34,084 nt of DNA, from positions 1 to 34,084 of IMG/VR virus record IMGVR_UViG_3300036651_001316; one strand, written 5' to 3'. The notes beneath the pieces were generated by a model that did no database searches, had not been told where the DNA came from, and saw nothing but the letters and a program-made list of their open reading frames with translations. The stretch comes from a virus. Below, piece after piece: positions 1,948-30,735 of the stretch. Both the position numbers and the translations under genes were made by a program. The number at the start of each line of letters is the position of its first letter. The stretch's first letter is position 1.

Positions 1948-2396
1948 ACCGCCGCAGCCCTGGCGCGTCCTTCTCGGGCGACCTGTTCGAGATCCCGCAG
2001 CGCCCCGCGCCGCTGCCTGGCTCGATGGATTTTCGCCCCGTCGTCAGCGTGTTGGTTTCCAACATGTTGGCTGGCGCCGATAGGGCCGGCATTGACCGGC
2101 ACGAAGTTGCTGCTCGGGCGTCCCGTCTCAGTGGCAAGGATGTCACCAAGAACATGCTCGACGGTTACACCGCGCCCGGCCGCGGCGGCTTCAATGTGCC
2201 GCTCTGGCTCTCTCCGGTGTTGGAGGTCGCGTGCGAGAGCACGTTCCTGGTCGACTGGCACGCCAACGTACTCGGCGGCCGCCTTCTGTTCGGCGCGGAG
2301 ACTCTCGATGCGGAGATCGGCCGCCTGATGCGCGAGCGCGAGGCGGCCGATGCCCGCCTGCGTGACCTGAAAGACCAGCGCCGGAGGCTCAAGTAA
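1944..2396 (+). CDS. Early protein upstream of the transposase
   Basis: This 150-residue protein overlaps the previous stop (ATGA) and the transposase start (TAATG at 2394-2398), showing translational coupling on both sides. The frame extends further upstream, but the overlapped ATG at 1944 is the natural start. The middle (about residues 30-95) is globular with a possible helix-turn-helix around KDVTKNMLDGYTAP; the last 30 residues are highly charged and likely coiled (EIGRLMREREAADARLRDLK). Proteins of this kind occur before transposase A in Mu-like phages. A role in transposition control is possible but not shown. Confidence 0.7.
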   Translation: MNRRSPGASFSGDLFEIPQRPAPLPGSMDFRPVVSVLVSNMLAGADRAGIDRHEVAARASRLSGKDVTKNMLDGYTAPGRGGFNVPLWLSPVLEVACESTFLVDWHANVLGGRLLFGAETLDAEIGRLMREREAADARLRDLKDQRRRLK

Positions 2397-4357
2397 TGGC
2401 CGACGGCACGCAGCTGCTGGAACGCTGGTACACCGGCGCCGAGCTGGTCGGGCTTCCCGGTCTTCCCGGAACTGACCGGAACATCCGGGCCAAGGCAGAC
2501 CGCGAGGGCTGGACGTCACGCCCGCGCGCCGGACGTGGCGGTGGCCGCGAGTACGCGTTGAGCGCGCTGCCGCCGGCCACACAGGCCGCGCTGCTGTTGC
2601 GCGAGCGCCCGGTACAGCCGCTGGCGCCGCGAAACACCTTGGCGCCGAGCGACGAGCAGATCCGCTCGGCCTGGCAGCGCTACGAGCAGGCCAAGCAGCC
2701 CATGAAGGACGTCGCGCGGATGCGCCTGCAGGCGATCCATTCGGTGCAGCGCCTGGTGGCCAACAACGTGCCGCTGATGCAGGCCCGCGAGACGGTCGCC
2801 GCCCAGCTGCAGCGCGACGGCGTGCGCGGCGGCAGCGCCGCCAGCATCGCCCGCTGGCAGCAGGACGTGGCGCACGCCGGCCCGCAGGACTGGCTGGCCC
2901 TGCTGCTTCCGCACTACACCGGCCGCACCGCCACGGCCGAGATCGAGCCCAAAGCGTGGGAGCTGTTCAAGGCCGATTACCTGCGCCTGGAACAGCCCAC
3001 CGCGAGCAGCTGCTACGACCGCCTGCAGCGCATCGCCGCGACACGCGGCTGGACGCTGCCCAGCCTCAAGACCTTCACCCGCCGCGTGGAGCGCGAGCTG
3101 CCGCGCGCGGTGCTCGTGCTGGCCCGCCAGGGCGAGGACGCGCTGCTCAAGACCTATCCGGCCCAGGAGCGCGATCGCAGCATGCTCGCCGCGCTCGAGG
3201 GCGTGAACGCGGACGGCCACCGCTGGGACATCCGCGTGCGCTTCCCGGACGGCACCGAGGGCCGCCCGTGCATCCTCGGCTGGCAGGACCTGCACAGCGG
3301 CAAGATGCTGGCCTGGCGCCTGTGCGACCACGAATCCAGCGACGTGGTGCGCCTGTCCTTCGGCGACATGGTGCGCACCTTCGGCGTGCCCGGCAGCGTG
3401 TACCTGGACAACGGCCGCGCCTTCGCCAGTAAGTGGATGACGGGCGGCACGCCCAACCGCTACCGCTTCAAGGTGCGCGAGGAAGACCCCACTGGCGTGA
3501 TCACCACGCTCGTCGGCGCCGACAACGTGCACTGGGTGACCCCGTACCACGGCCAGGCCAAGCCGATCGAGCGCGCCTGGCGCGACTTCTGCGATCGCAT
3601 CGCCAAGCACCCGGCCTTTGAGGGCGCCTACGTCGGCAACAACCCGACCAACAAGCCGGAGAACTACGGCGAGCGCGTGATCGAGTGGGCAACCTTCGAG
3701 CGCGTGGTGAACGAGGAGATCCACGCCCACAACGCCCGCACGGGCCGGCGCACCCGCGTCTGCGCCGGGCGCAGCTTCGACCAGGCGTTCGCCGAGAGCT
3801 ACGCCCGCACCATCGTGCGCAAGGTCGGCGAGGAGCAGCTGCGGCTGCTGTTGCTGGCCGCCGAAGCGGTCACCGCCAGCCCGGTCGACGGCAGCGTGCG
3901 CCTGGCGGGCAACCGCTACTGGCACGAGGCGCTGTCCGAGCACGCCGGCCGCAAGCTGGTGCTGCGCGTCGACCCGTACCGCTTGCACAGCCCAGCCCAC
4001 GTCTACGCGCTGGACGGCACCTACGTCTGCGCCGCGGACTGCGTGGCCACGGTCGGCTTCGCCGACGTCAACGCCGCACGGGAACACGCGCGCGGCCGCA
4101 AGCAGTACAAGCGCGCCGCCAAGGACATGCTGGCTGCGGAGCGGCTGATGGACGCCGCCCAGGTGGCCGCCCAGCTGCCCGAAGTCATGCCGCCCACGTT
4201 GCCCTCGGCGGGCATCGTCGCGCCGGTGTTTGGCCTGCACGGCAAGAAACCCGAACCGCAACCGCAACGCGCGGCCGCCACCGGCACCGATGGCCCGAGC
4301 CCGCTTGACCTGCAGATGTTCGAGCGCGCCAAGCGCTTGAAGGAAGAACAGCTTTAA
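2396..4357 (+). CDS. A: MuA-like DDE transposase
   Basis: This 653-residue protein is close to Mu A in length (663). Residues about 9-65 form the winged-helix Mu DNA-binding domain (WYTGAELVGLPGLPGT...). The catalytic core carries the DDE triad: D273 in NADGH, D338 in YLDNG and E392 in PIERAW, nearly the same numbering as Mu D269/D336/E392. A beta-barrel Mu-transposase C domain follows at about 475-545, then a charged C-terminal tail as used in Mu for MuB contact. It cuts and joins phage ends to target DNA for integration and replicative transposition. The triad is intact and no frameshift is seen, so it is probably active. Confidence 0.97.
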   Translation: MADGTQLLERWYTGAELVGLPGLPGTDRNIRAKADREGWTSRPRAGRGGGREYALSALPPATQAALLLRERPVQPLAPRNTLAPSDEQIRSAWQRYEQAKQPMKDVARMRLQAIHSVQRLVANNVPLMQARETVAAQLQRDGVRGGSAASIARWQQDVAHAGPQDWLALLLPHYTGRTATAEIEPKAWELFKADYLRLEQPTASSCYDRLQRIAATRGWTLPSLKTFTRRVERELPRAVLVLARQGEDALLKTYPAQERDRSMLAALEGVNADGHRWDIRVRFPDGTEGRPCILGWQDLHSGKMLAWRLCDHESSDVVRLSFGDMVRTFGVPGSVYLDNGRAFASKWMTGGTPNRYRFKVREEDPTGVITTLVGADNVHWVTPYHGQAKPIERAWRDFCDRIAKHPAFEGAYVGNNPTNKPENYGERVIEWATFERVVNEEIHAHNARTGRRTRVCAGRSFDQAFAESYARTIVRKVGEEQLRLLLLAAEAVTASPVDGSVRLAGNRYWHEALSEHAGRKLVLRVDPYRLHSPAHVYALDGTYVCAADCVATVGFADVNAAREHARGRKQYKRAAKDMLAAERLMDAAQVAAQLPEVMPPTLPSAGIVAPVFGLHGKKPEPQPQRAAATGTDGPSPLDLQMFERAKRLKEEQL

Positions 4358-4362
4358 AGCGC

Positions 4363-4390
4363 CCCGGCGGGTGTTGGCGCACCCGCCGGG
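4363..4390 (+). terminator. Strong hairpin between A and B, no T run
   Basis: A perfect 11-bp GC-rich stem (4363-4373 with 4380-4390) encloses a six-base loop just after the transposase stop. No T run follows on either strand, so it is not a classical terminator. It could protect the upstream mRNA end, attenuate transcription into B, or lower A-to-B read-through. It is one of few gaps in an otherwise overlapping early operon. Confidence 0.5.
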
Positions 4391-4425
4391 ACTAGGCAGC
4401 AGTAACCACGCAAGGGGATCAACCA

Positions 4426-5388
4426 ATGAATGACACCGCTACCGTTACGCAAATCTATCAGGGCGACGACGCCCTCCGGGAGAAGGTCCGCGCCGCGATG
4501 GCGCGCGACCGTGGCCTGAGCCAGGCCGCCGTTTCCAAAGAGGCCGGCGTCAGCGCCACCACCTTCAGCCAGTGGCTGGGCGGCAAGTACGCCGGCGACA
4601 ACGAAGCCGTCGACACCAAGGTGCGCCTGTGGCTGGAGGCCGCGGACGCCCGCCGCGCCGCCGGCAACGTGATGCCGACCGTGCCCAGCTTCGTGGCCAC
4701 GCCCACGGCGCTGCGCCTGCTTGGCCTGCTGGGCTACGGCCAGATGGCCGGCGACATCGTCATCGCCTACGGCAACGCCGGCGTGAGCAAGACCAGCGCC
4801 AGCGAGTACTACCAGGCCAGCAGCCCCAACGTGTGGATCGCCACGATGGAGCCCTCGACCCGCGGCGTGGTGACCTGCCTGCAGGAGATCTCCGAAGCCC
4901 TGGGCCTGGACACCAGCGGCGGCGCCCGCGCGATGGTCAAGCGCATCAACAAGCGGGTGAAGGACACCCACGGCCTGCTGATCCTGGACGAGGCGCAGCA
5001 CCTCTCCTACGACGCGCTGGACCAGGTGCGCGCGATCCACGACGCCACCGGCATCGGCATCGCGCTGATCGGTAACGAGGGCCTGTTCTCGCAGCTCTCC
5101 GGCGGGCGCAACGCCGCGAAGCTGGACCGCCTGCACAGCCGCATCGGCAAGCGCCTGCAGCTGAAGCAGCCCACTGAGGCCGACGTGGTCAGCCTGATCC
5201 AGGCGTGGGGCGTCACCGAGGAAAAGTGCCGCGCCACGCTGATGCAGATCGCCCGCGGCCCCGGCGCCCTTCGCACGCTCACCAAGACCCTGCGCCTGGC
5301 CAGCATGAACGCCAACGCGGAAGGCCGCGCCGTGTGTTGCGAGGACGTGCGCGCGGCCGCGGTCGAGCTGGTGGACGGCGGCAGGTAA
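4426..5388 (+). CDS. B: MuB-like transposition ATPase
   Basis: This 320-residue AAA+ protein matches MuB (312 residues). An N-terminal Xre-like helix-turn-helix lies at about residues 31-52 (LSQAAVSKEAGVSATTFSQW). The Walker A motif is GNAGVSKT (116-123) and Walker B is LLILDE (184-189). The C-terminal helical region (about 245-315) corresponds to the MuB DNA- and A-interacting domain. It binds target DNA with ATP, activates transposase A and directs strand transfer away from phage DNA. It lies directly after A, as in Mu. Confidence 0.95.
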   Translation: MNDTATVTQIYQGDDALREKVRAAMARDRGLSQAAVSKEAGVSATTFSQWLGGKYAGDNEAVDTKVRLWLEAADARRAAGNVMPTVPSFVATPTALRLLGLLGYGQMAGDIVIAYGNAGVSKTSASEYYQASSPNVWIATMEPSTRGVVTCLQEISEALGLDTSGGARAMVKRINKRVKDTHGLLILDEAQHLSYDALDQVRAIHDATGIGIALIGNEGLFSQLSGGRNAAKLDRLHSRIGKRLQLKQPTEADVVSLIQAWGVTEEKCRATLMQIARGPGALRTLTKTLRLASMNANAEGRAVCCEDVRAAAVELVDGGR

Positions 5389-12249: not shown

Positions 12250-12265
12250 CACGCGGAGGGTGCGC

Positions 12266-12589
12266 ATGGGCTTCAAGGATCGTTTGAGCGCGAGTTACAC
12301 GCGCATCGCGGGCATGCTCGATGGCGGCGGCCGCATGATGCTGTGGGCGCTGCTCTCGCTGATGCTGCTGCTGGTGATCGCGGTGGCGTTCAACCCGGCG
12401 AAGTTCGGCAGCTACCTGTGGATCGTCTCGAAGCTCAGCCTGGCCGCGGTGCTGGGCTATGGCTTCGACCGCGGAGCCAGCCCGGACGCGAGGCCCTCGC
12501 AGCTGGACGGCATCGAGCGGGCTATGGCGCAGACGCGCCGCGCCACGCTCATGGCCGCCTCGATCATCGCCGCGGGGCTGATGCCGTGA
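12266..12589 (+). CDS. Putative holin, two or three membrane segments
   Basis: This 107-residue protein matches the 2/3-transmembrane holin family of Mu-like phages. Hydrophobic segments lie at about residues 24-43 (MMLWALLSLMLLLVIAVAFN), 50-67 (YLWIVSKLSLAAVLGYGF) and 93-106. The segment NPAKFGSYLWIVSKLSLAAV and the FDRGASP turn are typical. It would form the membrane lesion that times lysis. ATG 12266 has GGAGG six bases upstream and is preferred over GTG 12260. It opens the late lysis operon. Confidence 0.8.
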   Translation: MGFKDRLSASYTRIAGMLDGGGRMMLWALLSLMLLLVIAVAFNPAKFGSYLWIVSKLSLAAVLGYGFDRGASPDARPSQLDGIERAMAQTRRATLMAASIIAAGLMP

Positions 12590-12747
12590 TCGCCATCCTC
12601 GTCGCCCTGGTCCTTATCGCCTGGTGGAAGATCCCCAGCACCGAGGCCGAGGCGCGGCACGTCCTCGCCCCTTACCGCGCCCTGACCGGCACGCTCTGCC
12701 TCCTGGCGGCGCTGGTGTTCTGGCTCGTCATGCGGGGCTCGCTGTGA
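12586..12747 (+). CDS. 53-residue membrane protein of the lysis cassette
   Basis: This short gene starts at GTG 12586, overlapping the holin stop (GTGA), and ends at 12747 overlapping the next GTG. It has two hydrophobic segments (VIAILVALVLIAWW at the start and LCLLAALVFWLVM near the end) joined by a short charged loop. Candidates are a second holin, an antiholin or a holin-assisting protein. Its place between holin and endolysin supports a lysis role. Confidence 0.65.
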   Translation: MIAILVALVLIAWWKIPSTEAEARHVLAPYRALTGTLCLLAALVFWLVMRGSL

Positions 12748-13496
12748 TCTGGGGCGTCTACCTGATCCTGTGGGGCCTCTGCTGGCTCTACGGCGCTACC
12801 CGCCCGGCGGCGCCCTGGTTCCCGCGTCCGTGGGTGCGCAGCCTGATCGGTCTGCTGATCTTCACCACGGGCCTCCTGGTGATCAGCTTGAACGCCGCCG
12901 CCGCCCCCGCGAAGGCACCTCCGACGCCCGCCGCCCGCTCGGTGGCGGTGCCCGAGGCGAGCGCCATGTATCGCCGCTGGATCGAGCAGGCGGTGGCGGA
13001 GGAATGGGGCGTCGACGGCTCGCCCGCGCGCCTCGCCGCACAGCTGCACCAGGAGTCGAGCTGGAACCCGAACGCGCGCAGCCCGGTCGGCGCCGAGGGC
13101 CTTGCGCAGTTCATGCCGTCGACCGCGCGCTGGATGGCCGAGGCGTTCCCCGATCGCCTGGGCAGCTTCGACCCGTGGGACCCGCAGCAGGCCGCGCTGG
13201 CCGCAGCGGTCTATGACGTTTGGCTCGCCCAGCGCAACCCGGGCGCCGGCCAGTGCAGCACGTGGTCCTTTGCGCTGTCGGCCTACAACGGCGGCGAGGG
13301 CAACCTGCGCCGGGAACAGGCGCTCGCCGTCAAGGCCGGGCGCGATCGCCGACGCTGGGCAGGCAACGTGGCCGACATGCGCTCGCGGTCGACCGCGGCC
13401 TGGCGCGAGAACCGCGCCTACGTGCAGCGCATCCTGACGGTGCTGGAGCCCGCCTACATCGACGCCGGCTGGGCTGGTCAGGCGGTGTGCGCATGA
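12744..13496 (+). CDS. Lytic transglycosylase endolysin, membrane-anchored
   Basis: This 250-residue protein has a C-terminal SLT-type lysozyme-like domain (about 74-235): catalytic E104 in HQESSWNPNA, the VGAEGLAQFMPSTA motif (115-128) and SAYNGGEGN (179-187). The N-terminus has hydrophobic stretches at about 2-17 and 33-50 with an Arg-containing loop between, so the catalytic domain would face the periplasm either through two anchors or, if translation began at GTG 12834, behind a signal peptide ending at an Ala run. It cleaves peptidoglycan glycan strands during lysis. The GTG at 12744 is coupled to the previous stop and was preferred; the later GTG lacks a ribosome site. Confidence 0.88.
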   Translation: MIWGVYLILWGLCWLYGATRPAAPWFPRPWVRSLIGLLIFTTGLLVISLNAAAAPAKAPPTPAARSVAVPEASAMYRRWIEQAVAEEWGVDGSPARLAAQLHQESSWNPNARSPVGAEGLAQFMPSTARWMAEAFPDRLGSFDPWDPQQAALAAAVYDVWLAQRNPGAGQCSTWSFALSAYNGGEGNLRREQALAVKAGRDRRRWAGNVADMRSRSTAAWRENRAYVQRILTVLEPAYIDAGWAGQAVCA

Positions 13497-24914: not shown

Positions 24915-26374
24915 TGGACTTCGACACCATCCCCAGCGACATCCGCGTCCCGCTCGCCTACGTCGAGTTCAACAACACGCGCGCCCAGGCCGGGCTGGCC
25001 GAAGACAGCTACACCATCCTGGTGCTGGGCCAGCGCCTGGCTGCCGGCACGGTGCAGGCAGGCGTGCCGACCGAGGTCCTCGGTGCCGCCCAGGCCGAGC
25101 AGTACTTCGGCCGCGGCTCGATGCTCGCCGCCATGCTGGCGGCCCTGAAGAAGGCCAACAGCTATACCCGTGTGGTCGCGATCGCCCTGGACGATGCTCC
25201 GGCCGGCGCCGCGGCTACCGGCACGCTCACCTTCACCGGCGCGGCGACCCAGACGGGCACGCTGAACCTGTATGTCGCCGGCACCAAAGTGCCGGTGGCG
25301 GTCGCTGCCGGCGATGACCCGACCGCCGTGGCCACGGCGGTCGTGGCGGCGATCGGCGCCAACACCCAGCTGCCGGTGACGGCCGCCAATGCCGCGGGCG
25401 TGGTCACGCTGACCGCTCGCCACAAGGGCGAGGCCGGCAACACCCTGGATGTGCGCCTCAACTACTACACCGGCGAGCTGACGCCGGCTGGCCTGCAGGT
25501 GGCCATCGCCGCCATGAGCGGCGGCACCAGCAACCCCGACGTGTCCGACGCGATCGCGGCGATGGGTGACGCCTGGTATCAGGCGATCGTCATGCCCTAC
25601 ACCGACGCGGCCAACCTGACCGCGCTGGAGACCGAGCTGGTCGATCGCTTCGGCGGTATTCGCCAGATCGACGGCATCGCCTACACCGCCTTCCGCGGCA
25701 CCGCCGCCGCCACCGACACCTTCGGCACCGGCCGCAACTCGCTGACGGTGACGTGCATGGGCACGTCGATCGCGCCGCAGCCGCCCTACCTGTGGGCAGC
25801 GGTCAATGCGGCGGTGGCGGCCGCGTCGCTGGCGATCGACCCGGCGCGTCCGCTGCAGACGCTGGCGCTCCCCGGCATCCTGCCGCCGGTGCAGGCGGAC
25901 CAGTTCACCTTCAGCGAGCGCAACCTGCAGCTGCACAGCGGCATCGCCACCCACAAGGTGGATGCGGGCGGCAATGTGCTGATCGAGCGCCAGGTGACGA
26001 TGTACCAAAAGAACGCGTTCAGCATCGCCGATACCAGCTACCTGGACGTCGAGACGATCGCGACGCTGAGCTACATCCGCTTCGTCACCCGCGCGCGGAT
26101 CACCAGCAAGTTCCCGCGGCACAAGCTCGCCGGCGACACGGTCAAGCCGGCGCCCGGCCAGGCGATCGTGACGCCCACCATCCTGCGCGGCGAATTGATC
26201 GCGCTGGCCAGCGACCTAGTCGACGCCGGGCTGATCGAGGACCTGGAGCAGTTCAAGAGCGACCTGGTCGTGCAGATCGATCCCAACAACCCGAACCGGG
26301 CCAACGTGCTGTCGAGTCCGAACCTGGTCAACCAGCTGCGGATCTTCGCCGAGCAGATCCAGTTCATCGTCTGA
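24914..26374 (+). CDS. L: Contractile tail sheath, Mu L-like
   Basis: This 486-residue protein matches the tail sheath family: the start DIRVPLAYVEFNNTRAQAGL, the RGSMLAAMLAALKKANSYTR motif, an exposed beta domain (about 95-190), and the C-terminal SYLDVETIATLSYIRFVTRA region with the FRHKLAGD-type loop. Length is close to Mu L (495). It wraps the tube and contracts on infection. No disruption is seen. Confidence 0.95.
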   Translation: MDFDTIPSDIRVPLAYVEFNNTRAQAGLAEDSYTILVLGQRLAAGTVQAGVPTEVLGAAQAEQYFGRGSMLAAMLAALKKANSYTRVVAIALDDAPAGAAATGTLTFTGAATQTGTLNLYVAGTKVPVAVAAGDDPTAVATAVVAAIGANTQLPVTAANAAGVVTLTARHKGEAGNTLDVRLNYYTGELTPAGLQVAIAAMSGGTSNPDVSDAIAAMGDAWYQAIVMPYTDAANLTALETELVDRFGGIRQIDGIAYTAFRGTAAATDTFGTGRNSLTVTCMGTSIAPQPPYLWAAVNAAVAAASLAIDPARPLQTLALPGILPPVQADQFTFSERNLQLHSGIATHKVDAGGNVLIERQVTMYQKNAFSIADTSYLDVETIATLSYIRFVTRARITSKFPRHKLAGDTVKPAPGQAIVTPTILRGELIALASDLVDAGLIEDLEQFKSDLVVQIDPNNPNRANVLSSPNLVNQLRIFAEQIQFIV

Positions 26375-26389
26375 GAGAGGTAACGACCA

Positions 26390-26752
26390 ATGGCAAAGAT
26401 GTTTGGAAAGGCCGAGGTCTCCAGCGACGGGCAGCGCCTGCTGGTGGATGACGCGAGCAAGCTCAACCTGGGCGGTGTCAAGCGCAATACCGTCAAGGGC
26501 ACCGAGGTGTATGGCTACGCCGAAGAGGCGCAGGAGTCCTCGGTGGAGGTCAACGTGTTCATCGGTGCCGATACCGACCTGGACGCGATCAACAACACGA
26601 CCGATGCCACGATCACTTTCAAGTGCGACAGCGGCCAGTGCTGGGTCCTGCCCCACGCCTGGCTCGAATCGCCGGTCGAGGCTGGCGCCAAGAACACCGG
26701 TGGCCAGGCGCAGCTGAAGTTCGTGGCGGCCAAAGCGGAACGCGTGGCATGA
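26390..26752 (+). CDS. M: Tail tube protein, Mu M-like
   Basis: This 120-residue protein fits the tail tube family: a start with FGKAEVSSDGQRLLVDDASK, a beta-barrel pattern with ESSVEVNVFIGADTDLDAIN and the GGQAQLKFVAAKAE end. It polymerises into the inner tube for DNA passage. It has a GAGAGG site before ATG 26390 and overlaps the chaperone gene by four bases. Confidence 0.93.
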   Translation: MAKMFGKAEVSSDGQRLLVDDASKLNLGGVKRNTVKGTEVYGYAEEAQESSVEVNVFIGADTDLDAINNTTDATITFKCDSGQCWVLPHAWLESPVEAGAKNTGGQAQLKFVAAKAERVA

Positions 26753-27048
26753 GCACGATCAAAGGCACGCTCAAGCATGGGCTGAAGGTCGGCGAGACCC
26801 TCCACAAGGACTACGAAGTCCGCGAGGCAACCACGGCCGATCTGTTCGACGCCGAGGACCAGGCTCCCGTCACCAAGCGCCTGTCTTACAAGGGTGCGCT
26901 GCTGGGTCGCCAGCTGGTGCGCCTGGGCGAGCTATCCGGCCCGATCGACATCGCGATGATCCGCAAGCTGCATCCCGCGGACTTCGAGTTGCTCTGCGAC
27001 GAGATGGACAAGGCCGACAAGCAGGGAAAAGGGGAACCCGGCAGCTGA
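26749..27048 (+). CDS. Tail assembly chaperone, short form (Mu gp41-like)
   Basis: This 99-residue protein fits the Mu gp41 tail assembly family: TIKGTLKHGLKVGETLHKDY, the EVREATTADLFDAEDQAPVT motif, YKGALLGRQLVRLGEL and a C-terminal DFELLCDEMDKADK. It coats the tape measure during tail building. Ribosomes that do not shift at 27024-27030 end at TGA 27046-27048 and make this form, expected to be the major product. Confidence 0.88.
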   Translation: MSTIKGTLKHGLKVGETLHKDYEVREATTADLFDAEDQAPVTKRLSYKGALLGRQLVRLGELSGPIDIAMIRKLHPADFELLCDEMDKADKQGKGEPGS

Positions 27049-27203
27049 GGGAACGCCACCTTCAGGTGCTGATGCTTGGCACCCGCACGGGCTGGAGCCA
27101 CCGGGAAATCACGGCACTGCCGCGCAGCGTGTTCGACCTCTACGTGCACACCCTGACGAACAGGACCGACACCGAGACGAACACGACCGACACCGACGAC
27201 TGA
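26749..27203 (+). CDS. Tail assembly chaperone, -1 frameshift fusion
   Basis: A -1 shift on G GGA AAA (27024-27030) continues from 27030 to TGA 27201-27203, adding 57 residues and giving a 151-residue product. The new part runs RGTRQLRERHLQVLMLGTRT, then GWSHREITALPRSVFDLYVH and a Thr/Asp tail, which looks like a real helical protein and not random frame. No start codon precedes it in that frame, so the shift is the only obvious route. Frameshifted tail chaperones (lambda G-T, P2 E-E') are well known. The fusion would recruit tube subunits to the tape measure. Confidence 0.82.
27024..27030 (+). promoter_or_regulatory. Programmed -1 ribosomal frameshift site
   Basis: The heptamer GGGAAAA is in the correct phase (zero-frame codons GGA AAA) for a classical X XXY YYZ slip, one base different from the lambda GGGAAAG site. 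It lies 16 bases before the zero-frame stop, and the -1 frame stays open 57 codons. The following GGGGAACCC may add to pausing; no strong downstream hairpin was seen, as in many tail chaperone sites. Confidence 0.82.
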
Positions 27204-27207
27204 GGCA

Positions 27208-29043
27208 ATGAGCGATACCCTGAAGCTAGCCATGCGCATCAGCGCCGTCGACCTCTTCAGCGGAGTGCTGCGGCGCTTCCGTTCGGAGATCGGCGGCGCT
27301 GGCGCGCAGGCGAAGGCCATGCAACGCGACTACGACGCGATGATCCGGCACACCTCAGCCGGTCTCAAATCGCTGGCGGTGGCCGACTACGGGTACAACA
27401 AGCTCAAGCCTGCGGTGGCGCAGGCAGCCGATCTGCAGGAGTCGCTGCTGAGCGTGGAGGGCATCCTGCAGGGCGCCCACCCGAACGCCAAGCTGCTGGC
27501 CGACCAGATGGCGAAGGTGCGCGACAACTCGATCGAGGTCGCGAGCCACCTGAAATACAGCGCCACGGCGGTCACCGATGTGACGCGCGAGCTTTACCAG
27601 GGCGGCGTGCCGCTTGAGGCGATCCTGGAAAAGTTCGACAGCAAGGGCAAGCTGGTGCGCCACGGCGCCGCCTACATGACCGAAGTCCTGGCCGAGACCA
27701 AGAAGGAGGACCCGGCCACGGTGGCGATGGACATCGCCAACATCGGCCACAGCTTCCAACTGCGGCCGGACCAGTACGGCGATGCAGCGGACATCATTGC
27801 CAAGGCCAGCGTGACCAGTTCCGGCAGCCTGTCCCAGCTGTTCCACAACCTGGACCAGGTCGGCAGCCGCGCGCACATGTACGGCAACATGGACCTGAAG
27901 TCCACGGCGATCGCGCTGAAGGCCCTGGCGCCGCTGGGCGAGGAGGCCGGCTCAGACCTGGGCGAGTTCCTCTCGCGCATCACCGGCGGCAGCTATCGCG
28001 GCCGCAAATGGATGCAGAAGTCCGGCTTCGACTTCTACGACAAGAAGGGCAATTTCATCGGCCTGGATGAGTCGATCAGCCTGATCCAGAAGCGCACCGA
28101 ACACATGACGCAGGAGCAGCGGAACAAGATGCTGGGCCTGCTGTTCGGGCAGACCGGCGGCAAGGCCGTGACGCAGCTGATCGCGCCGAGCATGCCGGGC
28201 GTCAAGAGCTACTGGGAGATCAAGGACTCCTACAGCCAGCAAGCGGGGTTGGAGCAGCAGAACGACACGTGGGCGAAGGGATTCACGGCCCAGGTGCAGA
28301 AGCTCTCCTCGACGAATGACAGCACGCTCGCCACGCTGTTTGATCCGCTGCTCGGCGACCTCACGACCGCGATCAAGAAAACCAATGAACTGAGTGGCGC
28401 GATCGGCAACCTGGCGACCAAGCATCGCGGTTTTGCCGACACCGTGTCGTATGGCAGTGCCGCGGCGGTTGCCAGTGCCGGCGCCTATGGCGTGTATCGG
28501 TTGGCGCGAGCGGCTGGTCCGGGCGGGCGCTTGTTCAAGGGCCTGCTAGGCCGCGGCGCTGGTGTGGCTGCGGGCATTGCCGAGGGCAAGGCTGTGGAAG
28601 CCGCCACTGGCGTTGTTCCCGTGTTCGTCACCAACTTCCCGCCGAGCTTCGGCGCGGCGAGCACCGTGGCCGACGCGGCGGTTGCGGCAGGCACCGCGGC
28701 CAAGGTCGAGACCACAGTCGCGGGCGGCGCGGGCCTCGCGGGCTGGCTCTCGAAGTTCCCCAAGCTCGGCAGTCTAAGTTCTCTGATGTGGGTGCCGCAC
28801 CCGGATGTCGATCCGGACGAGTTCGGCAGAAAGCTGCAGCACGATTTCAAGGACGACGGCCGCAGCTGGTTTCAGCACTGGGGCGACGTTTTCCACGGTC
28901 GGAAGGGTCAGAACGAACAGACCGAAGTGGGCGGCACGATCAAGATCCAGATCGACCAGGACGGTCGCGCCAAGGTCAAGGACGTCAAGAGCGCCAACCC
29001 GCGCGTGCCGCTGGACGTCGGCATGATGATGATGCTGCCGTGA
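27208..29043 (+). CDS. Tail tape measure protein
   Basis: This 611-residue protein matches the Mu gp42-type tape measure (TP901 core): LQESLLSVEGILQGAHPNAK, then the SATAVTDVTRELYQGGVPLE and AADIIAKASVTSSGSLSQLF segments and EFLSRITGGSYRGRK. Hydrophobic Gly/Ala segments at about 415-500 fit the transmembrane-type region that channels DNA through the membrane. The length sets tail length. ATG 27208 follows the frameshift stop by four bases, with a GAGG site. Confidence 0.9.
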   Translation: MSDTLKLAMRISAVDLFSGVLRRFRSEIGGAGAQAKAMQRDYDAMIRHTSAGLKSLAVADYGYNKLKPAVAQAADLQESLLSVEGILQGAHPNAKLLADQMAKVRDNSIEVASHLKYSATAVTDVTRELYQGGVPLEAILEKFDSKGKLVRHGAAYMTEVLAETKKEDPATVAMDIANIGHSFQLRPDQYGDAADIIAKASVTSSGSLSQLFHNLDQVGSRAHMYGNMDLKSTAIALKALAPLGEEAGSDLGEFLSRITGGSYRGRKWMQKSGFDFYDKKGNFIGLDESISLIQKRTEHMTQEQRNKMLGLLFGQTGGKAVTQLIAPSMPGVKSYWEIKDSYSQQAGLEQQNDTWAKGFTAQVQKLSSTNDSTLATLFDPLLGDLTTAIKKTNELSGAIGNLATKHRGFADTVSYGSAAAVASAGAYGVYRLARAAGPGGRLFKGLLGRGAGVAAGIAEGKAVEAATGVVPVFVTNFPPSFGAASTVADAAVAAGTAAKVETTVAGGAGLAGWLSKFPKLGSLSSLMWVPHPDVDPDEFGRKLQHDFKDDGRSWFQHWGDVFHGRKGQNEQTEVGGTIKIQIDQDGRAKVKDVKSANPRVPLDVGMMMMLP

Positions 29044-29045
29044 TG

Positions 29046-29399
29046 CTACGGACCAACCAGCTTGGAAAAGGTCCAGTAGGCAGTGGGCTTACCCTGCAGG
29101 TGCATTTTGGAAATGCCGCCAGCCGGTTCCTGTTCGATCACAATCGCGTCGCCGGTGAAGAGCTTGATGCAGTCACCGTTGGCTATACCGCCGAACGCAA
29201 GTTGCAGCGCTGCGTCAGAATCCTTTTGGGAGAACAACTCTCCCATGCGCTCGATCGTGGCGCGGTTCTGGCAGCCAACCATTTCCCCAGTCATGTGGCG
29301 AATACCCTCGCCACTCGGCTGTGCGCGAAGTCCGTAAATGCCGAGCGCAATAACTCCGAAAAAGCAGGCCAGAGCCAGATTTTGGATGGTCCCTTTCAT
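29046..29399 (-). CDS. Opposite-strand periplasmic cargo protein (moron)
   Basis: This 117-residue protein is the only minus-strand gene inside the late operon. The N-terminus has a hydrophobic helix (about residues 7-22) that is either a signal anchor or signal peptide; the rest has two cysteines (C43 and C77) spaced for a disulphide and ends with a PTAYWTFSKL motif. Composition is clearly more A/T-rich than its neighbours. It starts at ATG 29399 with GGGGGAC upstream. Placement, opposite strand and composition fit a lysogenic-conversion cargo gene expressed from the prophage, possibly for superinfection exclusion; its function is unknown. Confidence 0.75.
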   Translation of the reverse strand: MKGTIQNLALACFFGVIALGIYGLRAQPSGEGIRHMTGEMVGCQNRATIERMGELFSQKDSDAALQLAFGGIANGDCIKLFTGDAIVIEQEPAGGISKMHLQGKPTAYWTFSKLVGP

Positions 29400-29410
29400 C
29401 GACTGTCCCC

Positions 29411-29447
29411 CATTTGCACCGCCAGGAGCTTAGCAAATGTCCTGGCG
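29411..29447 (+). promoter_or_regulatory. Two mutually exclusive hairpins at the N start
   Basis: CATTTGC (29411-29417) can pair with GCAAATG (29433-29439), burying the ATG of the N-like gene. CGCCAGGA (29420-29427) can pair with TCCTGGCG (29440-29447), burying its AGGAG ribosome site. The arms interleave with no base between 29439 and 29440, so both stems cannot form completely at once. This could set N translation after the interrupted operon segment. The same dyads lie in the upstream region of the opposite-strand gene and could be a protein site. Confidence 0.5.
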
Positions 29448-30735
29448 TGACGAATTGCAGCCCGGTTCGTTCCGCGGCGTGCCTTTCCTGATCGACGGCT
29501 CCGAGGCTGAATTCGGTCGGCGTATCGCGTTGCACGAATACCCGCTGCGCGATACGCCCTATGGGGAGGATCTCGGCCGCCGCGGGCGCCAGTTCTCGAT
29601 CGAGTGCCTGGTGCTTGGGCCGGACTACATGGCCGCGCGCGATAATCTGATCCAGGCGCTCGAAGCGCCTGGCGCCGGCACCTTGGTGCATCCCTATCTC
29701 GGCACCCGTCGCGTGGTGGTGGCACAGCCCGCCAGCGTGTACGAAAGCACCCGCGAGGGTGGCCTGGCCCGTTTCCGCATCCCCTTCGCCGAGGCCGGCG
29801 AGAAGCTGGAGCCGGAGGCAACTGCCGACACCGCAGCCCAGGTGCAGGACCAAGCCGACGCAACCAGCACGGTGTTGGCCAACAGCTTCGCCAGCCAGTG
29901 GAACGTCGAAGGAACGCCGCAATGGGTAAGCGACGCCGGCAGCGGCTACCTGACCCAACTGACGGACCAGTTGAAAGCGCTGCGCGACAGCATCCCGGGC
30001 CTGCCTGACTCGGTCACGGCCTTCAACGCTCAGCTGCAGGCGTTCTCCGATGGGCTGTCTAGCCTGATTCGCACGCCCTTCAACCTGGGGGCGAACGTTC
30101 TTGACCTGGTGCTTGGCCTGGGCACCATCGCCCAGCAGCCGATCAATGCGCTGGGGCTTTACCGCAACCTGTTCGACTTCGGCTCCGACCAGGCGCCCGT
30201 TGCAGGCACCACGCCGGCACGCAAGCAGCAGGCAACCAACCTCACGGCCCTGCAGGGGCTGGTGCGCGGGGCTGCGATCGCGCAGGCGGCCGCTGCGGCT
30301 TCCAAGGTGCCGGCGCAGACCCAACCTGCCAAGGTGGCATCGGTGGCCAGCACCACGAGCACGTCGGCAACGGCTACGCAGCTGACCAGCGACCCAAGCA
30401 CGTCGGCGACCATCGGCTATGGCACGGCCGACCAGGCCGTAGTCATCCGCGATGCGCTGACGGATGCGATCGACGATCAATCGTTGATTGCCGACGACGA
30501 TCTCTACGTGCAGCTGTTGGATCTGCGCACCGCAATAGTGCGTGACATCAACACCCGGGTGGCGGGCCTGCCGAACCTGATCACGTTCACGCCGAGCACC
30601 ACGCTGCCGGCGCTGGTGCTGGCCAATCGCCTGTATGGCGACGCCGGTCGCGAGCAGGAGATCGTCGCTCGCAACGATCTGCGCTATCCCGCCTTCGTCA
30701 CCGGCGGCCAGGCGCTGGAGGTGCTCGGTGAGTGA
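29437..30735 (+). CDS. N: DNA circularisation protein N
   Basis: This 432-residue protein matches the Mu N family: an N-terminal domain (MSWRDELQPGSFRGVPFLID, RRIALHEYPLRDTPYGEDLG, GTLVHPYLGTRRV) typical of DNA_circ_N, then long Ala-rich helical stretches. In Mu, N is carried by the tail and enters the cell with phage DNA, joining its ends into a non-covalent circle that protects it before integration. It has an AGGAG site 8 bases before ATG 29437, within the hairpins described there. Confidence 0.9.
   Translation: MSWRDELQPGSFRGVPFLIDGSEAEFGRRIALHEYPLRDTPYGEDLGRRGRQFSIECLVLGPDYMAARDNLIQALEAPGAGTLVHPYLGTRRVVVAQPASVYESTREGGLARFRIPFAEAGEKLEPEATADTAAQVQDQADATSTVLANSFASQWNVEGTPQWVSDAGSGYLTQLTDQLKALRDSIPGLPDSVTAFNAQLQAFSDGLSSLIRTPFNLGANVLDLVLGLGTIAQQPINALGLYRNLFDFGSDQAPVAGTTPARKQQATNLTALQGLVRGAAIAQAAAAASKVPAQTQPAKVASVASTTSTSATATQLTSDPSTSATIGYGTADQAVVIRDALTDAIDDQSLIADDDLYVQLLDLRTAIVRDINTRVAGLPNLITFTPSTTLPALVLANRLYGDAGREQEIVARNDLRYPAFVTGGQALEVLGE

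What the first reader, a model, noticed from the sequence alone, without database searches (positions are those of the whole stretch)
29046..29399. Opposite-strand, A/T-richer cargo gene between tape measure and N
A 117-residue protein with a membrane helix and two cysteines is inserted on the minus strand in an otherwise continuous rightward late operon. Its composition differs from its neighbours. It would be expressed from the prophage and is exported or membrane-anchored, so superinfection exclusion or a host fitness role is plausible. This is the strongest candidate for an undescribed function in the window.
Basis: partly seen in the sequence, partly recalled or inferred. Interest (0 to 1): 0.6.

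Follow-up and report, generated by a model that had tools for sequence, protein, structure and literature searches.

The report
Membrane-protein cargo slot in Mu-like phages
The backward gene is real: it is one of at least eight unrelated, interchangeable small membrane or exported-protein genes that Mu-like phages keep in one fixed slot of their tail operon, and because one slot-mate belongs to a known superinfection-immunity family, these genes probably let a resident phage keep rival phages out of its host cell.

Summary
The ORF at 29046-29399 (-) is a real gene. The window is a temperate Mu-like phage (MuA, MuB, own holin and transglycosylase elsewhere). Five phages from other contigs carry divergent homologues (19-33% identity) on the same strand at the same junction; two are lipoproteins. 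AlphaFold gives a low-confidence N-terminus plus a confident 85-residue domain, an SH3-like barrel with a helical hairpin and two invariant cysteines.

The wider result is the slot. In 196 non-redundant tape-measure/N junctions, 124 have the two genes abutting and 50 carry one minus-strand gene filling the gap. The 50 fall into about nine unrelated families; nearly all begin with a signal peptide, lipobox or membrane helix (26 of 28 in the first set, against 9% of control ORFs). They are AT-richer than their flanks in 48 of 50. Phages with 96%-identical N proteins carry unrelated cargo. A short element before N (AGnnTAGC) is present in 39 of 50 cargo loci and 0 of 124 others. One slot-mate is a T4-Imm-family superinfection-immunity protein (Pfam E 2e-17).

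Best reading: a lysogen-expressed envelope moron, probably superinfection exclusion (confidence about 0.6). Expression, activity and target are untested. One-to-one matching to the tape measure protein is not supported.

The parts
29046..29399 (-). Cargo gene X, 117 aa: N-terminal membrane anchor (about residues 7-23) and predicted periplasmic domain (residues 33-117)
29049..29303 (-). Folded domain, residues 33-117: SH3-like barrel with inserted helical hairpin; invariant C43 and C77
   Evidence: AlphaFold pLDDT about 95 in most of this region; fold matches; conserved columns
29406..29411 (-). Likely ribosome-binding site of X (GGGGGA on the minus strand)
   Evidence: sequence; inferred
29427..29435 (-). 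TGCTAAGCT on the minus strand (AGCTTAGCA on plus): element shared by cargo-bearing junctions, resembling an extended -10 box
   Evidence: AGnnTAGC in 39 of 50 cargo loci and 0 of 124 cargo-free loci; promoter role inferred, generic sigma-70 scan found nothing
27208..29043 (+). Tape measure protein gene; stops 2 bp from the stop of X
   Evidence: PF10145 and PHROG hits; 2-bp spacing in 31 of 50 cargo loci
28641..28918 (+). Segment of the tape measure gene that is hypervariable among the closest relatives (10-38% against 65-100% on either side)
29437..30735 (+). N gene (DNA circularisation / baseplate hub), right border of the slot
   Evidence: PF07157 E 9e-33, phrog_184 E 2e-102
2396..5388 (+). 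Mu-type transposase A and B genes (2396-4357, 4426-5388): the phage is a transposing, temperate type
   Evidence: PF02914 E 5e-53, PF09077 E 4e-26
12260..13496 (+). Lysis genes (holin 12260-12589, transglycosylase 12624-13496), showing that the slot is not the lysis cassette
   Evidence: PF13272 E 6e-7, PF01464 E 2e-17

Best explanation
X is a prophage-expressed superinfection-exclusion protein held in a dedicated, swappable cargo slot of Mu-like phages with contractile-type tails. The gene lies antisense in the late operon, so the late transcript does not make the protein. It is probably transcribed from its own weak promoter overlapping the start of N while the prophage is silent. The protein is anchored in the inner membrane by its N-terminal helix (some relatives by a lipid), with a small SH3-like, probably disulphide-bonded domain in the periplasm, where it interferes with genome entry by incoming phages. 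Shown: gene, coding strand, family, slot, swapping, compositional foreignness. Predicted: membrane anchoring and fold. Inferred: lysogen expression, exclusion activity, and block at genome entry.
For: Slot census: of 196 non-redundant junctions, 124 have no gene, 50 have one minus-strand gene filling the gap. N-terminal export-type hydrophobicity in 26 of 28 candidates against 9% of 273 control antisense ORFs. Minus strand is the better-conserved reading in every family tested. Cargo AT-richer than flanks in 48 of 50, median -9.3 G+C points. Cargo swapped between phages whose N proteins are 96% identical (L012 against L228/L229); at least 25 cargo changes on the N tree. Common element before N: 39 of 50 against 0 of 124, and a synonymous CGT preference in N, 28 of 37 against 15 of 83, P 3e-9. 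Slot-mate L098 matches Imm_superinfect (E 2e-17), PHROG 'immunity to superinfection' (E 2e-21) and annotated T4-type Imm proteins, 55% over 56 aa. Window phage is temperate in type, with its own lysis genes. Precedents from papers: HK97 gp15, TP-J34 Ltp and P22 SieA (PMC10883804); diverse exclusion lipoproteins in the structural gene cluster of mEpimmI phages (PMC11893012).
Against: No direct evidence of expression or exclusion. X itself matches no Pfam, PHROG, NCBIfam or defence-library family. Only one of about nine slot families has a recognised immunity function. The generic promoter scan found no sigma-70 site. Four Vreelandella prophages with near-identical tape measure C-termini carry different cargo, so cargo is not matched one-to-one to that protein. 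Two X homologues lie outside phages, which also fits a general envelope function.
Confidence: 0.6

Rival explanations
1. Envelope moron for host fitness: the slot carries lysogenic-conversion genes that alter the envelope (stress, surface properties, bacterial competition), with no role against phages.
For: Exported or anchored products of many unrelated kinds; X homologues on two Rhodanobacteraceae chromosomes away from phage junctions, one in an AT-rich island; SH3-like periplasmic domains are general binding modules.
Against: One slot-mate is of the superinfection-immunity family; rapid divergence (31-33% in X against 81-85% in N of the same phages) and frequent swapping fit an arms race better than housekeeping.
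Confidence: 0.22
2. Exclusion factor that recognises the tape measure protein of its own phage type, so that X and the variable tape measure segment coevolve as a matched pair.
For: Within the X clade the tape measure segment 28641-28918 is hypervariable alongside X, while the sequence between and around them is conserved; [quoted passage not shown]
Against: L018 and L019 share a similar tape measure segment but their X proteins are not specially similar; Vreelandella phages with near-identical tape measure ends carry cargo types B, C and D.
Confidence: 0.08
3. Lysis regulator (antiholin or accessory holin).
For: Family B slot-mates are small two-helix proteins with marginal holin hits, E about 0.001-0.07.
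Against: The window has its own holin and transglycosylase; X and families C, D and E are single-anchor or secreted proteins with large soluble domains; the gene is antisense to the late operon.
Confidence: 0.05
4. Tail component or tail-assembly factor.
For: Position between two tail genes.
Against: Absent from 124 of 196 junctions, opposite strand, export signal, swapped for unrelated proteins.
Confidence: 0.03
5. Spurious ORF opposite a plus-strand gene.
For: A plus-strand frame is also open across the gap, and G+C-rich DNA gives long spurious ORFs.
Against: Minus reading scores higher in all 15 X-family pairs and in most pairs of the other families; confident fold from six divergent sequences; start codon and ribosome site in place.
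Confidence: 0.01

Closest known systems
Imm_superinfect family (PF14373; T4 Imm type)
   Same: A member sits in the same slot and on the same strand in L098 (gammaproteobacterial MAG), with similar spacing (5 bp from the tape measure stop, 41 bp from N); small membrane protein
   Different: X has no sequence match to it; X has one anchor and a soluble domain, the L098 protein several membrane helices
HK97 gp15
   Same: Moron coding a predicted inner-membrane protein that blocks DNA injection (PMC10883804)
   Different: Long non-contractile-tailed phage; no sequence relation seen in the family searches; that gp15 lies beside the tape measure gene is from memory, not checked
TP-J34 Ltp lipoprotein
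   Same: Small anchored extracytoplasmic exclusion protein; argued to be a moron (PMC3952083)
   Different: Gram-positive host; fold recalled as helical, not SH3-like; its target is the tape measure protein, which is not supported here
mEpimmI exclusion lipoproteins (Lpp021, Lpp010)
   Same: Several lipoprotein types among related phages, inside the structural gene cluster, with exclusion shown by expression (PMC11893012)
   Different: Different phage group; the exact position and strand of those genes were not checked here
Exclusion genes of Mu-like Pseudomonas phages (gene 10, olg1/sie1)
   Same: Superinfection exclusion by transposable phages (PMC9936078)
   Different: Located beside the repressor in the regulatory region, not in the tail operon; Olg1 was found in the soluble fraction

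Membership tests
Moron (horizontally acquired cargo gene) | Present in some, absent in other relatives at a precise site | tested here: met
   124 of 196 junctions lack it, 50 carry a gene; swaps at 96% N identity
Moron (horizontally acquired cargo gene) | Atypical composition | tested here: met
   48 of 50 cargo genes AT-richer than flanks, Wilcoxon P 1e-9; window gene 56.5% against 65-67%
Moron (horizontally acquired cargo gene) | Own promoter and terminator | tested here: inconclusive
   Shared extended -10-like element, but no sigma-70 or terminator match in a generic scan
Prophage superinfection-exclusion protein | Expression alone blocks infection | not testable with these tools
   needs plating assays
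Prophage superinfection-exclusion protein | Expressed in the lysogen | not testable with these tools
   needs strand-specific RNA
Prophage superinfection-exclusion protein | Located at the cell envelope | tested here: inconclusive
   Predicted only: N-terminal hydrophobic anchor in X, lipobox in relatives L018 and L019
Imm_superinfect (PF14373) | Sequence match of X to the family model | tested here: not met
   No match for X or any X-family member; only slot-mate L098 matches
SH3-like domain proteins | SH3-like barrel fold | tested here: inconclusive
   VIA Z 7.4, rmsd 2.2 over 61 residues to an NlpC-type protein; many SH3 chains at Z 5.6-6; Foldseek best E 0.15. Z below 8, so only a common arrangement can be claimed
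Holin or lysis protein | Lies in the lysis cassette | tested here: not met
   Holin and transglycosylase lie at 12260-13496

The most novel reading that the evidence does not exclude
The tape-measure/N junction of Mu-like phages is a dedicated immunity slot: a standardised antisense cassette with a shared border element and promoter, into which many unrelated families of envelope exclusion proteins are exchanged, so that the slot's cargo decides which phages can enter a lysogen, and X belongs to a new SH3-like periplasmic exclusion family.
Probability: 0.45. Interest if true: 0.75.

Novelty: new variant of a known kind. Interest (0 to 1): 0.58.

Why it matters
If true, one short, easily recognised locus in a widespread group of transposing phages becomes a ready-made list of new superinfection-exclusion proteins, most with no family model today, and it can be mined by position alone. 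It also gives a natural swap experiment, since nearly identical phages carry different cargo, to learn what envelope exclusion proteins recognise. The papers that could be searched describe exclusion genes of Mu-like phages near the repressor and do not mention this slot.

Tried and rejected
Search for X relatives in the genome collection by X itself found nothing, and the phage collection gave only weak antisense matches inside Arthrobacter portal genes, taken as chance. X profile against the PDB: one chance-level hit. A search of 369 genomes of the class for X found none, but no positive control lay in that set. One-to-one coevolution of X with the tape measure segment was tested and not supported. 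Structural hit in Xanthomonas phage FoX1: the record read was the relative FoX5, and no X-like gene was found there. More polylysogens were sought in two groups; only the two Vreelandella genomes already in hand carry two related prophages. Both pairs differ in cargo, which is too few to count. No named fold family beyond SH3-like came out of the structure searches. Phages SfV and Bordetella PBb002 simply have no gene annotated at this junction.

Full report
What is there. The ORF at 29046-29399 on the minus strand starts with ATG and codes for 117 residues. It stops 2 bp from the stop of the tape measure gene (27208-29043) and begins 37 bp before N (29437-30735); both neighbours are firmly identified. 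The window is an IMG/VR virus record of a temperate-type Mu-like phage: Mu transposase A and B, Mu F-like and protease I-like head proteins, tail tube, holin and transglycosylase were all recognised. X is AT-richer than its neighbours (56.5% against 65.1 and 66.6% G+C). It has three cysteines, not two; C43 and C77 are the conserved ones.

It is a gene family. By sequence alone X has no Pfam, PHROG, NCBIfam or PADLOC match. Following the neighbours instead gave phages with 57-83% identical N proteins, and five of these carry a divergent X homologue at the same junction on the same strand: L007 (same contig as L018), L004 (same contig as L026), L019, L020 and L021. While N is 79-83% identical, X is only 31-33% identical in the closest two. 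L018 and L019 have a lipobox, the others a membrane helix. Invariant are a GC pair, G.C, two further glycines and a YW pair. Two further homologues lie on Rhodanobacteraceae chromosomes, not at a phage tail junction. The minus-strand reading beats every plus-strand reading in all 15 pairs.

Fold. AlphaFold with six sequences gives pLDDT about 95 for most of residues 33-117 and low confidence for the N-terminus. The order is two strands, a helical hairpin, then four strands. The best structural neighbours are SH3-like barrels, including bacterial SH3 domains of cell-wall enzymes (VIA Z up to 7.4; Foldseek E no better than 0.15). Predicted viral proteins of unknown function, one called a lipoprotein, match better (best E 7e-5). 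I take this as an SH3-like arrangement, not proven kinship.

The slot. Collecting N genes from viral contigs and genomes gave 196 non-redundant tape-measure/N junctions. In 124 the genes abut or overlap (gap under 30 bp); 12 have a gap of 30-120 bp; 50 carry a single minus-strand gene that fills the gap (one further candidate, L175, was dropped as spurious); 9 have something else. In 31 of the 50 the cargo stops exactly 2 bp from the tape measure stop, and its start usually lies about 40 bp from N. The cargo falls into unrelated families: B (two-helix, about 60-80 aa, 20 loci), C (about 150-180 aa lipoproteins or secreted, 10), D (5), X (5 in the count, plus L021), E (3, plus L117), G (3), and singletons including L098 and L324; L241 is a fusion of C and D. 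C and D were separated by eye, because the fusion joins them in the clustering. Nearly all begin with an export or membrane signal: 26 of 28 in the first set pass the hydrophobicity cut, against 9% of 273 antisense control ORFs. Of the two that fail, one is the spurious L175 and the other (L097) has a recognisable signal peptide below the cut.

The slot is exchanged. Cargo is AT-richer than the mean of both neighbours in 48 of 50 loci, median 9.3 points. Alteromonadaceae phage B23 (L012, type D) and L228/L229 (type C) have 96% identical N proteins but unrelated cargo. On a tree of 173 N proteins the cargo state changes at least 25 times, and at least 22 times among the cargo carriers alone. 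L096 and L324 share a signal peptide but not the mature protein. The nearest relative found in a cultured genome, a Dyella lutea prophage (L097), carries type C, although its N is 64% identical to the window's.

A shared border. Just before N, the plus-strand sequence GGAGCnTAGCAC recurs across hosts and cargo types: AGnnTAGC is within 25 bases of N in 39 of 50 cargo loci and 0 of 124 cargo-free ones. The fourth codon of N is CGT in 28 of 37 cargo loci but 15 of 83 cargo-free ones (P 3e-9). Shared ancestry inflates these figures, and in cargo-free loci the region before N is tape measure coding sequence. GGAG is presumably the ribosome site of N. On the minus strand the rest reads TGCTAnnCT, an extended -10-like box about 35 bases before the cargo start. 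A generic sigma-70 scan finds nothing. I infer a cargo promoter; it is not shown.

Function. The slot-mate in L098 matches Imm_superinfect (E 2e-17) and PHROG 'immunity to superinfection' (E 2e-21) and aligns with annotated T4-type Imm proteins, 55% over 56 residues. Its strand, size, spacing and membrane character are those of the other cargo. With the temperate life style, the antisense position, the foreign composition and the fast turnover, superinfection exclusion at the envelope is the best single explanation. It matches known practice: exclusion proteins of HK97, TP-J34 and P22 act at DNA entry from the membrane (PMC10883804), and mEpimmI coliphages carry several exclusion lipoprotein types in their structural gene cluster, with activity shown (PMC11893012).

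Target. The tape measure segment encoded at 28641-28918 varies strongly within the X clade, which suggested matching of X to the tape measure protein. Two facts speak against a simple pair: L018 and L019 share the segment type without specially similar X proteins, and Vreelandella prophages with almost the same tape measure C-terminus carry B, C and D cargo. Two Vreelandella genomes each hold two related prophages, and in both cases the cargo differs; this fits exclusion but is only two cases.

Novelty. Exclusion morons are a known kind. The papers that could be searched place exclusion genes of Mu-like phages next to the repressor (PMC9936078) and most accessory genes in the left arm (PMC4378225); none found describes this slot. 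Most papers of subscription journals could not be searched. X is a new family, and the slot a new variant of a known arrangement.

Noticed in passing
28641-28918: Tape measure segment (about residues 480-575) is hypervariable among close relatives while the last 45 residues are conserved; the cause is unknown.
   Followed up: partly
L241:1693-2565 (-): Slot gene is a 290-aa fusion of cargo families C and D, which are separate genes in other phages.
   Followed up: no
L096:3453-3959 (-) and L324:2062-2565 (-): Two slot genes share nearly the same lipoprotein signal peptide but have unrelated mature parts, although the N proteins are 90% identical: exchange inside the gene.
   Followed up: no
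L194 (slot gene, 119 aa): Looks like a tandem of two family-B units in one protein.
   Followed up: no
L175:3627-3884 and L176:3562-3864 (+): Fibrobacter Mu-like loci carry a plus-strand membrane-protein ORF in the same slot.
   Followed up: no
L134:3410-3942 (+): Symbiopectobacterium prophage carries two small plus-strand ORFs in the slot.
   Followed up: no
25320-25343: 24-bp palindrome inside the tail sheath gene region (exact match to its own opposite strand in the BLAST comparison).
   Followed up: no
L382 (17 kb around the chromosomal X homologue): Chromosomal X homologue lies in an AT-rich stretch (third-position G+C 0.35-0.6) with other small membrane proteins and a lipoprotein, between ordinary chromosomal genes.
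   Followed up: partly
26623-27203: Between tube and tape measure genes there are two short frames (26623-27048 and 27066-27203), as in frameshifted tail assembly chaperones; not analysed.
   Followed up: no
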